In this document: positions 43,731-63,959 of the stretch, piece after piece
How positions within the stretch are numbered: the first letter of the stretch is position 1
Layout: each line of letters opens with the position of its first letter
Source of the DNA: Faecalibacterium sp. HTF-F
GTDB lineage: Bacteria > Bacillota > Clostridia > Oscillospirales > Ruminococcaceae
Assembly (NCBI RefSeq): GCF_023347535.1
Contig: NZ_CP094473.1
Coordinates: 2,170,001 to 2,234,000, forward strand
DNA: 64,000 nt
Direction of reading: 5' to 3'
Translations under genes and position numbers: made by a program
The notes under the pieces: generated by a model
Told to the model about the DNA's origin: nothing
The model's database searches: none
Seen by the model: only the letters and a program-made list of their open reading frames with translations

Positions 43731-44711
43731 ATGTCAAAACCGATTTTATGGATCGTGATCCCCTGCTACAACGAAGAGCAGGTGCTGCCCATCACAGCAC
43801 CCATGTTTCTGGAAAAGATCCATTCTCTGGCCGCACAGGGCCTTGTGAGTGAAAAGAGCCGGGTGCTGTTCGTGAACGACGGCTCCAAAGACAAGACATG
43901 GGAGCTGATCCAGAATTTTGCCGCGCAGGATGAGCACTATATCGGCATCGCCCAGAGCCGCAACCGCGGCCACCAGAACGCCGTGCTGGCCGGTCTGATG
44001 GAGGCGCTGCACAGCGGCACCTGCGACATTACCATTTCCATCGACTGTGATGGTCAGGATGACATCAACGCCATGGACGAGATGGTAAAAAAGTATCTGG
44101 ACGGTGCCGAGGTGGTCTACGGTGTGCGCAGCCGCCGCGATACGGACACCTTCTTCAAGCGGTTCACCGCCGAGGGCTTTTATCACGTGATGAACGCTCT
44201 GGGTGCGGACATCGTGTTCAACCATGCAGACTACCGCCTCATTAGCACCCGTGTGCTGGAAAGCTTTGCCGACTACAGGGAAGTGAACATTTTCCTGCGC
44301 GGCATGGTGCCTCTGGTGGGCTTCCGGAGCGATGTTGTCACCTACGAGCGCCATGAGCGCCTTGCCGGTGAGAGCCACTACCCCCTGAGCAAGATGCTGG
44401 CACTGGCCTTTGACGGCATCACCAGCCTTTCCAACAAGCCCATCCGCATCATTACCGGGGCAGGCATCGCCGTGAGCCTGGTCGGCTTTATCGGAGTCAT
44501 CTGGGCCATCGTGTGTGCCGCCATGGGCAGCAGCGTGGCCGGCTGGGCCTCCATCGTGTGCATCGTCTGCTTCATGAGCGGCGTGCAGCTGGTGTGTCTG
44601 GGCGTCATCGGTGAATATATCGGTAAGATCTATATGGAGACCAAGGCCCGTCCGCGCTACATCATCAGTGAGCGCACCTGGGCCCCCTACGAAAGGAAGT
44701 ATCACGGATGA
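43731..44711 (+). CDS. Glycosyltransferase family 2, GtrB/DPM1-like
   Basis: A 326-aa membrane-anchored transferase that loads a sugar onto a polyprenyl phosphate in this family. N-terminal GT-A domain: WIVIPCYNEEQVLP, VNDGSKDKTWELI, then SIDCDGQDD in place of the DXD. The acceptor-side R-x-x-D/D-x-D region is VVYGVRSRRDTDTFFK. Two C-terminal membrane helices (IITGAGIAVSLVGFIG and ASIVCIVCFMSGVQLVCLG). It overlaps the flavin reductase gene by 4 bases, an unexplained pairing. Confidence 0.9.
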   Translation: MSKPILWIVIPCYNEEQVLPITAPMFLEKIHSLAAQGLVSEKSRVLFVNDGSKDKTWELIQNFAAQDEHYIGIAQSRNRGHQNAVLAGLMEALHSGTCDITISIDCDGQDDINAMDEMVKKYLDGAEVVYGVRSRRDTDTFFKRFTAEGFYHVMNALGADIVFNHADYRLISTRVLESFADYREVNIFLRGMVPLVGFRSDVVTYERHERLAGESHYPLSKMLALAFDGITSLSNKPIRIITGAGIAVSLVGFIGVIWAIVCAAMGSSVAGWASIVCIVCFMSGVQLVCLGVIGEYIGKIYMETKARPRYIISERTWAPYERKYHG

Positions 44712-45292
44712 GCAAACAGAGCTGGCGCGGCAGCACCCTGCTGAACCCGGAACCGCCGGTACTGGTGTCCTGCGGCGGGCTGGAAAAGCCCAATCTCATC
44801 ACCATCGGCTGGACGGGCACCATCTGCACCCAGCCCAGCATGGTATCCATCAGCGTTCGGCCGGAACGCTACAGCCACCACCTCATTCAGGAAAGCGGAC
44901 AGTTTGCCATCAATCTGCCCACCGAAGCGCTGGTGCGTTCGGTGGACTGGTGTGGCGTGAAAAGCGGCCGTGACGTGGACAAGTTTGCCGCCTGCGGCCT
45001 GCACGCCGCCCCCGGCACCGTGCTGACCGACTGCCCCATTCTGGAAGAAAGCCCGGTGAACCTTGAGTGCAGGGTGACCCAGGTGATCCCGCTGGGCAGC
45101 CACGATTTGTTCCTTGCCGAAGTGGTGGCCTGTGATGTGGACGAAAGCCTGCTGGACGAAAACGGCAAGCTGTGTCTCGAAAAGGCAAAGCTCATCGTCT
45201 ACAGCCACGGTGACTATCTGGCTCTGGGCCGGAAGCTGGGCACCTTTGGCTACAGCGTGCGCAAGAAAAAGCCGGTAAGGCGTAAAAAATAA
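44708..45292 (+). CDS. Flavin reductase family protein
   Basis: A 194-aa FMN-binding split-barrel protein. LLNPEPPVLVSCGG at the start, NLITIGWTGTICTQPSMVSISV (flavin-binding loop) and FAINLPTEALVRSVDWCG are typical of the flavin reductase/DIM6-NTAB group, with LGTFGYSVRKK at the end. Such proteins reduce flavin with NAD(P)H or serve as flavoprotein electron carriers. Translationally coupled to the glycosyltransferase upstream. Confidence 0.88.
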   Translation: MSKQSWRGSTLLNPEPPVLVSCGGLEKPNLITIGWTGTICTQPSMVSISVRPERYSHHLIQESGQFAINLPTEALVRSVDWCGVKSGRDVDKFAACGLHAAPGTVLTDCPILEESPVNLECRVTQVIPLGSHDLFLAEVVACDVDESLLDENGKLCLEKAKLIVYSHGDYLALGRKLGTFGYSVRKKKPVRRKK

Positions 45293-45307: not shown

Positions 45308-45335
45308 TTGACTTTTGCCCAAAACTGCATATACT
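45308..45335 (+). promoter_or_regulatory. Promoter of antisense RNA 1
   Basis: TTGACT (45308-45313), 16-base spacer, TATACT (45330-45335). The whole segment TTGACTTTTGCCC...GCATATA is conserved at the second locus (63691-63718). Confidence 0.75.
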
Positions 45336-45341
45336 AAAGAT

Positions 45342-45424
45342 AGGCAATGAGATGAAGGCCTGTTCCGTGGTTACCACGAAAAAACCAAAAGCCCCCCGGT
45401 ACTGATACTACCGGGGGGCTTCTT
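45342..45424 (+). ncRNA. Candidate antitoxin small RNA 1
   Basis: Predicted RNA of about 80 nt from the promoter above to the shared terminator. Its 5' part contains AATGAGATGAAGGC and TGGTTACCAC, both repeated in the same orientation at 45516-45541 over the peptide start codon. The RNA is therefore complementary to the mRNA on both sides of the start. Ends are estimates. Confidence 0.7.
45390..45420. terminator. Shared bidirectional terminator of locus 1
   Basis: AGCCCCCCGGTA/TACCGGGGGGCT, 12 bp, 7-base loop. The minus-strand reading is followed by TTTGGTTTTTT (peptide mRNA), the plus by TCTTGGGTT (small RNA). Confidence 0.88.
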
Positions 45425-45427
45425 GGG

Positions 45428-45532
45428 TTAGTGCTTACTGCCCTTGAAGAACAGGCTGTCAAGCCACTTGCACAGATAGTAGGCAACTACCTCTGCTCCG
45501 ACAGTCTGTATAAATGAGATGAAGGCTTCCAT
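45428..45532 (-). CDS. 34-aa membrane peptide, candidate type I toxin 1
   Basis: A tiny hydrophobic protein: MEAFISFIQTVGAEVVAYYL, then CKWLDSLFF and a basic KGSKH tail. One membrane helix with a charged C terminus is typical of type I toxins. Strong ribosome site AGGAGG 9 bases before ATG. A near-identical 34-aa paralog (same I-S-F-I-Q-T-V, VVAYYLC, W-x-D and GSKH) occurs at 63804-63908 in the same arrangement. A convergent small RNA faces it. Toxicity is inferred from layout only. Confidence 0.78.
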   Translation of the reverse strand: MEAFISFIQTVGAEVVAYYLCKWLDSLFFKGSKH

Positions 45533-45584
45533 TGGTTACCACCTCCTTTCCGCGGTTAGGGGAATGGAGAAGGGCCGCAGGAAC

Positions 45585-45613
45585 AGTATAGCACAAAAAC
45601 CGGTATCGCGCAA
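45585..45613 (-). promoter_or_regulatory. Promoter of toxin-like peptide 1
   Basis: Minus-strand TTGCGC (45608-45613), 17-base spacer ending TTGTGC, TATACT (45585-45590). Confidence 0.7.
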
Positions 45614-45643
45614 TTTTGACGCAATACCGGTTTTCTTTTGCAT

Positions 45644-46576
45644 TTATTCGTGCTTTACGCGCTGGATCTCGCCCAGATCATAGGGGGTGTTCTGGTAGAC
45701 ATAGTAGTTCAGCCAGTTCTCATACAGCAGGTGGGCGTGGGCACGCCAGCGGAACAGCGGCGGTTTGGACGGGTCATCATCCGGGTAGTAATTCACCGGC
45801 ACATGGATGGGCAGGCCCTTGTCCACATCGCGGCGGTATTCCGAATCCAGCGTGTACTTGTCGTACTCCGGGTGGCCGGTGACAAAGATCTGCCGTCCGT
45901 TCTCGGTGCTCATGAGGAAAGGCCCGGCCACATCGCTCTCGGCAAGGATGCGCAGAGCCTTGCAGTTGTCCACATCCTCGCGGCTGATGCCGGTATGGCG
46001 GCTGTGGGGCGCATAGAACACCTCGTCAAAGCCGCGCACCAGAGGGTTCGACGGGCGGACGACCCGGTGCTCGAACACGCCGAACATCTTTTCCGGCAGC
46101 AACTGCTTGTGCACGCCGTAGTGATAGTACAGGCCCGCCTGTGCGCCCCAGCACACATGCAGGGTGGAGTAGACATTCGTCTCGCTGAAGTCCATGATCT
46201 CGCACAGTTCCTGCCAGTAATCCACCTGCTCAAAGTCCATGGTCTCCACCGGTGCACCGGTGATGATCATGCCATCGTAGCGGTTGTTTTTTACCTCGCC
46301 AAAGTTCTTATAGAACGATTCGAGGTGTGCCGCCGAAACGTGGGTCGCCGCATGGCTGGCCGTCTGCAGCAGGGTCATGTGCACCTGCAGCGGGGTATTT
46401 GCCAGCAGACGGGCGATCTGGGTCTCGGTGGTGATCTTGGTGGGCATCAGGTTCAGGATCAGGATCTCCAGCGGCCGGATGTGCTGGGCGAGGGCGCGCT
46501 CGCGATGCATGACAAAGACGTTCTCCTTGTACAGGGCATCGTAAGCAGGCAGAGTCTTGGGAATGATCAGCGGCAT
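45644..46576 (-). CDS. metA: Homoserine O-acetyltransferase (MetA-type)
   Basis: 310 aa, first step of methionine synthesis from homoserine. Starts [15 protein letters not shown]; the catalytic Cys142 is in [13 protein letters not shown]. Residue 111, in [11 protein letters not shown], is Glu, the residue associated with acetyl-CoA use in this family, where E. coli MetA has Gly and uses succinyl-CoA. This fits the O-acetylhomoserine-using MetY encoded just upstream. The ATG at 46576 follows AGGAG. Confidence 0.94.
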
Positions 46577-46614
46577 AGTGTCGTACTCCTTTGGTGCGGA
46601 TATTGATAGCGGCC

Positions 46615-46750
46615 TCGCCCTCTCCGTCACGGCTTACGCCGTGCCACCTCCCCCAAAGTGGGAGGCCTTGGCAAAACCACAAAGTTTACTTTTTCGCCAG
46701 CGGCTCCCCCCTTGGGGGAGCTGCTGAACGAAGTGAAGCTGAGAGGGCGA
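46615..46750 (-). repeat. Structured intergenic repeat, type 3
   Basis: TCGCCCTCTC (46615-46624) and GAGAGGGCGA (46741-46750) close a multi-branched element. Inside are hairpins with GCTCCCCC/GGGGGAGC, CCTCCC/GGGAGG and CACGGC/GCCGTG arms. It lies between metY and metA. A partial relative lies at 63621-63669. Confidence 0.6.
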
Positions 46751-63690: not shown

Positions 63691-63718
63691 TTGACTTTTG
63701 CCCTGAAGCGCATATAAT
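63691..63718 (+). promoter_or_regulatory. Promoter of antisense RNA 2
   Basis: TTGACT (63691-63696), 16-base spacer, TATAAT (63713-63718), closely matching the promoter at 45308-45335. Confidence 0.78.
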
Positions 63719-63724
63719 AAGGGT

Positions 63725-63803
63725 AGGCAATGAGATGAGCGTTCTCAAGGGATTCATGCCAAAAGCGAAGCCCCCCGGTATTCGGAGTACCGGGGGGCTT
63801 CTT
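63725..63803 (+). ncRNA. Candidate antitoxin small RNA 2
   Basis: About 80 nt from the promoter above to the shared hairpin. Its 5' words AATGAGATGAGCGT and CAAGG recur as AATGAAATGAGCGT and CAAGG at 63889-63910 over the start codon of peptide 2, so it can pair with that mRNA. The words match its own locus and not locus 1. Confidence 0.7.
63767..63801. terminator. Shared bidirectional terminator of locus 2
   Basis: GAAGCCCCCCGGTA (63767-63780) pairs with TACCGGGGGGCTTC (63788-63801), then TTTTAG. Near-identical to the hairpin at 45390-45420. Confidence 0.88.
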
Positions 63804-63908
63804 TTAGTGTTTGCTGCCCTTGCCTATCTTGCCGTCGATCCAGCTGCAAAGGTAGTAGGCAACTACCTGCGCTGCAACGGTTTGAATAAATGAAATGAGC
63901 GTATGCAA
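63804..63908 (-). CDS. 34-aa membrane peptide, candidate type I toxin 2
   Basis: M-H-T-L-I-S-F-I-Q-T-V-A-A-Q-V-V-A-Y-Y-L, then CSWIDGKIGKGSKH. Start is TTG at 63908, 8 bases after AGGAGG; a GTG three codons earlier lies inside that ribosome site. Same length, helix and tail as the peptide at 45428-45532. Promoter TTGAAT-17-TATACT at 63960-63988 on the minus strand. Role as toxin inferred from the convergent antisense RNA. Confidence 0.75.
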   Translation of the reverse strand: MHTLISFIQTVAAQVVAYYLCSWIDGKIGKGSKH

Positions 63909-63959
63909 GGAACTCACCTCCTTTCCGCGACTGGGGGATCGGAGAAGGGCCGCAGAGAC

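What the first reader, a model, noticed from the sequence alone, without database searches (positions are those of the whole stretch)
45308..45613. Convergent small RNA and 34-aa membrane peptide: par-like type I toxin-antitoxin locus 1
Seen: a 34-codon hydrophobic peptide gene on the minus strand and a convergent plus-strand promoter share one bidirectional terminator. Two words in the small RNA (AATGAGATGAAGGC and TGGTTACCAC) are repeated, in the same orientation, across the peptide's start codon, so the RNA can pair with the mRNA on both sides of the ATG. Known: this is the layout of the Enterococcus par locus (Fst/RNA II), with direct repeats and a shared terminator. Inference: a chromosomal type I toxin-antitoxin system with an unrelated toxin sequence.
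Basis: partly seen in the sequence, partly recalled or inferred. Interest (0 to 1): 0.85.

Follow-up and report, generated by a model that had tools for sequence, protein, structure and literature searches.

The report
Overlooked antisense-RNA toxin–antitoxin modules in Faecalibacterium
A 34-amino-acid membrane peptide gene is matched by a facing small RNA that can pair with its own start region; the same pairing code, with different letters at each copy, recurs in many gut bacteria and on small plasmids and phages, so this is very probably a poorly annotated branch of a known kind of bacterial addiction module.

Summary
On the minus strand, 45428-45532 encodes a 34-aa membrane peptide. A facing plus-strand promoter (45308-45335) drives a short RNA toward the same hairpin (45387-45423). 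Two words of that RNA repeat on both sides of the peptide's start codon.

I tested the interpretation on 165 non-redundant relatives found by peptide alone. The words differ between loci but match within a locus: the own small RNA is the best predicted partner (ties included) for 129 of 165 mRNAs. Of 166 transition mismatches between the word copies, 134 are of the kind a G-U pair tolerates; in non-matching controls 228 of 460 are. This supports RNA-RNA pairing in the proposed direction. Promoter, hairpin and peptide are conserved beyond controls.

The architecture is that of Enterococcus par/Fst. 'Unrelated toxin' is not supported: profile comparison, a bridging peptide and the Rfam SpF66 model link it to Fst/Ldr. 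It lacks the PxxxG motif and falls below the curated Fst models. Transcription and toxicity were not tested.

The parts
45428..45532 (-). Toxin ORF, 34 aa MEAFISFIQTVGAEVVAYYLCKWLDSLFFKGSKH (locus 1)
   Evidence: coding selection in the family: 71% synonymous among single-change codons against 25% expected
45542..45549 (-). Shine-Dalgarno AAAGGAGG of the toxin, predicted to be paired with the 5' UTR
   Evidence: fold of RNA I
45585..45613 (-). Toxin promoter: -10 TATACT (45590-45585), weak -35 TTGCGC (45613-45608), 17-nt spacer
   Evidence: read by eye; -10 position; not found by the scan. In relatives 61 of 165 have a >=10/12 promoter upstream against 6 of 165 shuffled
45385..45578 (-). Predicted toxin mRNA (RNA I-like), about 194 nt; ends inferred
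   Evidence: inferred from -10 and terminator; fold z -3.27
45308..45335 (+). Antitoxin RNA promoter TTGACT-16-TATACT
   Evidence: >=10/12 promoter on this strand downstream of the ORF in 134 of 165 relatives against 9 of 165 mononucleotide shuffles
45342..45427 (+). Predicted antitoxin RNA (RNA II-like), about 86 nt; ends inferred
   Evidence: fold z -4.36
45346..45359 (+). Pairing word 1 in the antitoxin RNA (AATGAGATGAAGGC)
45513..45526 (-). Same word in the toxin mRNA, codons 3-7
45368..45377 (+). Pairing word 2 in the antitoxin RNA (TGGTTACCAC)
45533..45542 (-). Same word in the toxin mRNA, from the end of the Shine-Dalgarno to the ATG
45387..45423 (.). Shared terminator hairpin
   Evidence: strong hairpin after the stop codon in 118 of 165 relatives against 1 of 165 shuffled
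63804..63908 (-). Toxin ORF of locus 2, 34 aa, TTG start
63691..63718 (+). Antitoxin promoter of locus 2 (TTGACT...TATAAT)
63729..63756 (+). Pairing words of locus 2 in the antitoxin RNA; 22 of 28 positions equal to 63889-63916
63889..63916 (-). Pairing words of locus 2 across the toxin start codon
63768..63800 (.). Shared terminator hairpin of locus 2

Best explanation
It is a chromosomal type I toxin-antitoxin module built like Enterococcus par. The minus strand encodes a short membrane peptide, presumably toxic when over-produced. The plus strand encodes an antisense RNA that ends at the same hairpin. The two RNAs share complementary terminator stem-loops and two further complementary words, one just upstream of the AUG and one in codons 3-7. 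Pairing over these words would close the ribosome's landing site. The Shine-Dalgarno is also predicted to be folded away inside the mRNA, and the mRNA 5' end to pair with the last codons. Each copy has its own words and hence its own specificity. Shown by sequence: the anatomy, the co-variation of the words, the G-U asymmetry, and selection for coding. Inferred: transcription, membrane toxicity, RNA stability differences, any addiction role.
For: Words differ between loci yet match within loci: cognate score strictly best in 102 of 165 and in the top 5% in 149 of 165; by duplex energy best or tied best in 129 of 165 from the mRNA side and 137 of 165 from the small-RNA side, 0 of 5000 permutations reach the cognate mean. 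G-U asymmetry of the transition mismatches 134:32, p 2.4e-16, non-cognate control 228:232; by locus 80:12 with 73 tied or without mismatch. Antisense promoter and hairpin conserved. The four intact modules of the own genome are mutually orthogonal in predicted energy: cognate -47.5 to -56.7, others -24.7 to -33.7 kcal/mol; 44 of 53 modules from 15 genomes have their own RNA as best. At one chromosomal site toxin, terminator and words changed together while flanks and both promoters stayed similar. A related genome has two mismatches, both G-U compatible (L011). The peptide is under coding selection. Annotated Fst plasmid loci show the same anatomy (repeats in register at the start used in 3 of 4).
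Against: No transcript or toxicity data here. 11 of 165 relatives have no repeat segment of score 10 or more. The Shine-Dalgarno occlusion signal across the family is weak (96 of 165 paired against 81 with a shuffled UTR, p 0.018). The window locus alone does not reach the SpF66 cut-off, and chance models score as high there. The plus-side U-tract of the terminator is weak. Of the 308 mismatches between word copies 142 are transversions, which break pairs. The loci are related by descent, so p-values are nominal.
Confidence: 0.88

Rival explanations
1. The repeats are DNA elements (protein-binding sites, recombination relics) and not pairing sites of two RNAs.
For: Direct repeats near promoters can bind regulators; whole modules are exchanged at one site.
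Against: Transition mismatches between the copies fall on the side a G-U pair tolerates (134:32, control 228:232). DNA binding or recombination predicts no such polarity. The words differ between loci.
Confidence: 0.03
2. The antisense pairing is real, but the peptide is a harmless or regulatory small membrane protein, or the mRNA itself is the functional RNA.
For: No toxicity data. The related pneumococcal RNA was catalogued as a small RNA (Rfam RF02442; PMC12323649, passages seen).
Against: Strong coding selection; remote relation to the Fst/Ldr toxins; presence on very small plasmids; one ortholog in which the toxin start is lost but the antitoxin promoter kept, the order of decay expected for a toxin.
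Confidence: 0.08
3. It is a C. difficile-type type I system (convergent, long overlap, RNA degradation).
For: NCBIfam CD_typeI_toxin touches 23 of 50 members, best E 2.1e-5.
Against: Of 10 members looked at singly 3 match, at most 24.8 bits against a cut-off of 60, and 0 of 31 genus genomes are over the cut-off; the matches start in the hydrophobic part. The C. difficile antitoxins are described as sharing a long complementary region with the toxin mRNA (PMC6563280, passages), not start-codon repeats.
Confidence: 0.02

Closest known systems
Enterococcus par / Fst type I toxin-antitoxin system (pAD1; NCBIfam NF033608, Pfam PF13955)
   Same: Convergent promoters, shared terminator, two repeats read in opposite directions across the start codon, sequestered Shine-Dalgarno and 5' end, a roughly 30-aa helix with a conserved Trp and a charged tail (PMC7472228, passages; four Fst loci read).
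   Different: No PxxxG in the membrane helix of the 165 peptides, a conserved (A/S)YYICKWLD instead; below the Fst models' cut-offs; no gene listed under any of the 30 plasmid hits shown, though the PLSDB gene table is incomplete.
Streptococcus pneumoniae SpF66 RNA (Rfam RF02442; srn502/F66) and its annotated Fst-family modules
   Same: The RNA model covers the full toxin mRNA of several members, over the cut-off for L284, L290 and the Faecalibacterium L016; the model's consensus line, read by eye, contains a frame ending in CKWLDG. D39V annotates Fst-family modules SPV_2447-2450 in that region (PMC6212727, passages).
   Different: A streptococcal RNA family; the window locus itself scores 24.7 bits against 42. 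That F66 belongs to these modules is my inference: the two papers use different coordinates, and an offset of about 456 nt taken from a neighbouring RNA puts F66 inside SPV_2447 and F67 inside SPV_2449. The 2025 paper itself names only F67 (M18) as annotated Fst family in the passages seen.
Ldr toxins of enterobacteria (Pfam PF13940)
   Same: Best hit of the peptide profile among PDB chains is LdrD, E 0.075; Ldr_toxin touches 4 of 50 members, best E 0.0051.
   Different: Regulation described as distinct from Fst (PMC7472228, passages); scores too weak to prove kinship.
C. difficile type I toxins (NF047374)
   Same: Convergent layout, small membrane toxins, prophage association (PMC7699646, passages).
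   Different: Toxins of 34 to 53 aa with lysine-rich tails and long-overlap pairing (passages); cut-off not met.

Membership tests
par/Fst system (architecture) | Convergent promoters and shared bidirectional terminator | tested here: met
   (window); 134 of 165 antisense promoters, 61 of 165 toxin promoters at >=10/12, 118 of 165 hairpins
par/Fst system (architecture) | Two direct repeats read in opposite directions, covering the toxin start | tested here: met
   204 segments in 154 of 165 loci, so many loci show only one segment at that score
par/Fst system (architecture) | Shine-Dalgarno sequestered by an intramolecular stem (5'-SL) | tested here: inconclusive
   paired in the window locus; across 165 loci only weakly better than a shuffled UTR, p 0.018
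par/Fst system (architecture) | 5' end of RNA I sequestered by intramolecular pairing (5'-UH) | tested here: met
   predicted; own 5' end fits own 3' end better, 0 of 2000 permutations, but the effect is moderate: 41 of 165 loci have under 5% of non-cognate ends as good; not recovered by the consensus fold
par/Fst system (architecture) | U-turn motif in the terminator loop | not tested
   described as not universal in PMC7472228 (passages)
Fst/Ldr toxin family | PxxxG motif in the transmembrane helix | tested here: not met
   1 of 165 peptides matches P...G, and that one lies in the tail; the bridging peptide L279/L215, outside the 165, has it
Fst/Ldr toxin family | Curated model cut-off (NF033608, PF13955) | tested here: not met
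   window peptide: no match; NF033608 touches 7 of 50 members, best E 0.013; no match in G000 with NF033608 or PF13955. PF13955 was searched in only 6 genomes, and one search shows 25 of 31 Pfam families
Fst/Ldr toxin family | Conserved Trp after the helix and a charged tail | tested here: met
   W, then L/I/F/V/M, then D/N/E/G/S/K in 163 of 165; mean 3.8 charged residues in the last 8; W aligned with the Fst W by hhalign, probability 92
Fst/Ldr toxin family | Toxic when over-produced, relieved by the antitoxin RNA | not testable with these tools
   needs an expression experiment
C. difficile type I toxin NF047374 | Score above the curated cut-off of 60 bits | tested here: not met
   best 24.8 bits among 10 members; 0 of 31 genomes over the cut-off
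Rfam SpF66 (RF02442) | Score above the gathering cut-off of 42 bits | tested here: not met
   window 24.7 bits; 1 of 31 genus genomes over it; relatives L284 93.8, L290 65.1, L016 44.8 are over it

The most novel reading that the evidence does not exclude
The clostridial branch is a large set of mutually insulated antisense specificities that behaves like a transferable code. Modules drop into intergenic sites, are swapped for others of different specificity at the same site, form tandem arrays, and ride on tiny plasmids and a filamentous phage. Chromosomal copies, and copies whose toxin has died while the antitoxin promoter survives, may protect the cell against incoming elements that use matching words.
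Probability: 0.15. Interest if true: 0.75.

Novelty: new variant of a known kind. Interest (0 to 1): 0.52.

Why it matters
It extends par-type addiction modules to a prominent group of human gut commensals, where a published search is reported to have found Fst-like sequences in only two clostridial species (PMC6563280, passages, citing Fozo 2010). Because the current family models miss these peptides, they are easily left unannotated, also on completely sequenced small plasmids. The co-variation and the G-U asymmetry give a sequence-only test of antisense regulation that could be applied to other small convergent loci. Practically, the modules could affect gene knock-outs, plasmid stability and strain engineering in Faecalibacterium.

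Tried and rejected
'Unrelated toxin': rejected. Stronger insulation among modules of one genome: tested and not seen; non-cognate pairs within a genome bind slightly better, not worse, than between genomes (mean -30.3 against -28.9 kcal/mol), and cross-pairs within 3 kcal of the cognate are 11 of 196 within and 68 of 2560 between genomes. PADLOC defence link: 0 of 50 members match. PHROG_738 touches 37 of 50 members at weak E (best 7.2e-5) but has no function assigned. Rfam fstAT matched only a Staphylococcus Fst control, below its cut-off. Consensus RNA folding recovered the terminator and a hairpin in the coding region but not the 5'-UH; I take the misaligned ends as the reason. Literature, seen as listings: the motif words occur only in an unrelated engineering paper; the three papers with Faecalibacterium and 'type I toxin-antitoxin' do not look to be about such a locus by title; the broader searches list 15 of 14,232 and 8 of 85 papers and decide nothing. 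All cover only the open-licence PMC library. Two key papers (Fozo 2010, Weaver 2009) are not held, so what they list for Clostridia is known here only through the review.

Full report
WHAT IS THERE. The window lies in a complete 2.78 Mb genome. Three genomes of its genus have contigs that coincide in length and position with named Faecalibacterium records (L014, L018 and L023; L090, L093 and L089), so the genus is Faecalibacterium. Between a flavin-reductase-like gene (44708-45292, plus; PF01613) and metA (45644-46630, minus) lies a unit of about 310 bp. It has a 34-codon ORF on the minus strand (45428-45532), a sigma-70-type promoter on the plus strand (45308-45335), a shared hairpin (45387-45423), and two words repeated on either side of the start codon. 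The 14-nt word was reached by 0 of 2000 shuffles. The ORF has a good Shine-Dalgarno. Its promoter (TATACT, 45590-45585, by eye) overlaps the terminator of metA and has a weak -35.

RELATIVES. The peptide has five matches in its own genome: four intact-looking modules, including a second one in this window at 63804-63908, and one decayed copy. In the genus, 10 of 31 genomes have it at E <= 0.01 (10 of 22 good assemblies), with up to 10 matches per genome, some partial. In the family it is found in 27 of 247 genomes and in the phylum in 21 of 398; both counts include some weak hits inside long frames. Their titles name Lachnospiraceae, Oscillospiraceae, Erysipelotrichaceae, Veillonella, Selenomonas, Blautia, Hungatella and others; this sample is biased toward the query. 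In viral contigs 54 of 89 stretches encode a relative. On plasmids a composed consensus query hit 69 of 72,556 records at E <= 1; in all 30 listed rows no gene is shown under the match, but the tool warns that the PLSDB gene table is incomplete. Plasmids opened include ones of 2.4 to 6.9 kb from Streptococcus pluranimalium, Mogibacterium, Waltera and Mediterraneibacter. Of 11 phage records hit at E <= 1, three are bajarodino viruses; the one opened is a filamentous phage (Inoviridae).

TEST OF THE PAIRING. Relatives were collected by peptide similarity only, so promoter, repeats and terminator are independent tests. From 210 loci I took 184 distinct elements. Ten lacked full flanks and nine were at least 85% identical at the start to another, leaving 165. 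The best ungapped match between a locus's start region and its own downstream region scores 12.2 on average, against 6.8 for regions of other loci. The own region is strictly best in 102 of 165 and in the top 5% in 149 of 165. With RNA duplex energies the own small RNA is best or tied best for 129 of 165 mRNAs and in the best 5% for 155; 0 of 5000 permutations reach the cognate mean.

POLARITY OF THE MISMATCHES. If the downstream copy acts through the RNA of the opposite strand, then T in the mRNA against C in the copy, and G against A, remain G-U pairs, while the reverse changes break the pair. Among 166 transition mismatches in 204 segments (154 of 165 loci), 134 are of the tolerated kind and 32 of the other (p 2.4e-16). 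A further 142 mismatches are transversions. The same count on segments from 3000 non-cognate pairs gives 228 and 232. Three other score settings gave 67:11, 59:8 and 101:30. Counted by locus, 80 lean one way, 12 the other, and 73 are tied or have none. A bias in G+C content cannot produce this, because the tolerated kinds go in opposite G+C directions. I regard this as the strongest evidence that two RNAs pair, and in the orientation proposed. The loci share ancestry, so the p-values are nominal.

OTHER SELECTED FEATURES. A promoter with at least 10 of 12 consensus bases is found on the antisense strand in 134 of 165 loci (9 when mononucleotides are shuffled, 16 on the sense strand); its -10 lies a median of 11 nt from the pairing word (155 loci). 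A strong hairpin follows the stop codon in 118 of 165 (1 when shuffled). Within the ORF core of 163 of 165 loci, 71% of single-change codons are synonymous against 25% expected, in pairwise counts that overlap, so the peptide is very probably translated under selection. The predicted toxin mRNA of the window folds with its Shine-Dalgarno paired and its 5' end paired to the last codons. The second feature is supported across the family (0 of 2000 permutations) with a moderate effect; the first only weakly.

NATURAL EXPERIMENTS. Of 30 genus genomes with the flavin-reductase gene (of 31 searched), five have metA within 400 nt of it: four with a module between (G000, G028, G012, G029) and one (G009) with an empty site of 84 nt. 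In five more, metA is 1.2-1.4 kb away, and in 20 no metA was found in the stretch held. In G029 the flanks are 85-100% identical to the window in 50-nt steps (70% in the last step) and the two promoter steps 92-100%, but toxin, terminator and both words are of another type (54-74%). In G012 the mRNA word has two changes, both G-U compatible. The decayed copy of the own genome (475.9 kb) has lost its start region by an insertion or replacement, while the antisense promoter remains; its ortholog in G029 is intact. The four intact modules of the window's genome are predicted to be mutually orthogonal, and so, with exceptions, are modules in tandem arrays. There is no sign that modules sharing a genome are more insulated than those of different genomes.

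WHAT IT IS RELATED TO. Annotated Fst loci from four plasmids show the same anatomy by eye (repeats in register in three, the start of the fourth was misassigned by my script). The features match the published description of par (PMC7472228, passages read), including the statement that DRa and DRb vary between paralogs, presumably giving specificity. The peptides do not reach the cut-off of any model seen: the window peptide has no Pfam or NCBIfam match, and for 50 members the listed matches are weak. Profile comparison with six Fst sequences gives probability 92% over 31 columns; its E-value is pairwise only. One relative, containing FPIIAGVITHLICKWLD, has both the Fst motif and the ICKWLD end. 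The best PDB hit of the profile is LdrD at E 0.075. Rfam SpF66, a pneumococcal RNA, matches 11 of the 15 family sources searched (E <= 0.5 and <= 0.1), end to end, and over its cut-off in L284, L290 and the Faecalibacterium L016. It misses L285, L002, L010 and L101, and it also weakly touches one of four Fst controls (L294). In the window it scores 24.7 against 42, and other, surely unrelated, models score as high, so that single hit is not evidence. In S. pneumoniae D39V, modules annotated as Fst family lie in the region of F66 and F67 (PMC6212727 and PMC12323649, passages); that F66 is one of them is my inference from coordinates. Hence I call it a divergent branch that works like par, and do not file it as a member of Fst proper, since PxxxG and the cut-offs were tested and not met.

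LIMITS. No transcript, toxicity or stability data exist here. 

Noticed in passing
L303 1296-1355 (genome G002, same flavin-reductase site): Downstream of the same flavin-reductase gene another Faecalibacterium genome has a different convergent unit: a strong promoter, a hairpin and a facing 19-codon ORF MRITFHIGEFTITIIVKKR with a good Shine-Dalgarno. The site may be a hotspot for small toxin-like modules.
   Followed up: partly
L274 (G609), L275 (G468), L276 and L277 (G599): Head-to-tail arrays of three to six modules about 330-620 bp apart, most with their own matching words.
   Followed up: partly
L289, 4501-4593: A filamentous phage genome (Inoviridae, bajarodino virus 15) carries an intact-looking module with a perfect 15-nt word and no annotation.
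   Followed up: partly
L005 (own genome 475.9 kb) against L029: Toxin start region lost in the window's genome, antisense promoter retained.
   Followed up: yes
L066, L070, L163, L170 (ATA); L078 (ATT); L036, L077, L081, L129 at 2871 (ACG); L079, L080 (AGC, then ATC): Copies from viral contigs and genomes with no ATG, GTG or TTG at the expected start position although a Shine-Dalgarno-like stretch precedes it. Possible non-canonical starts, or decay.
   Followed up: partly
alignment A4, columns 82-138: A conserved hairpin within the coding region around the AYYICKWLD codons, with changes on both sides of several pairs.
   Followed up: no
45596-45634: The metA terminator hairpin overlaps the -35 region of the toxin promoter, so metA termination and toxin transcription may interfere.
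   Followed up: no
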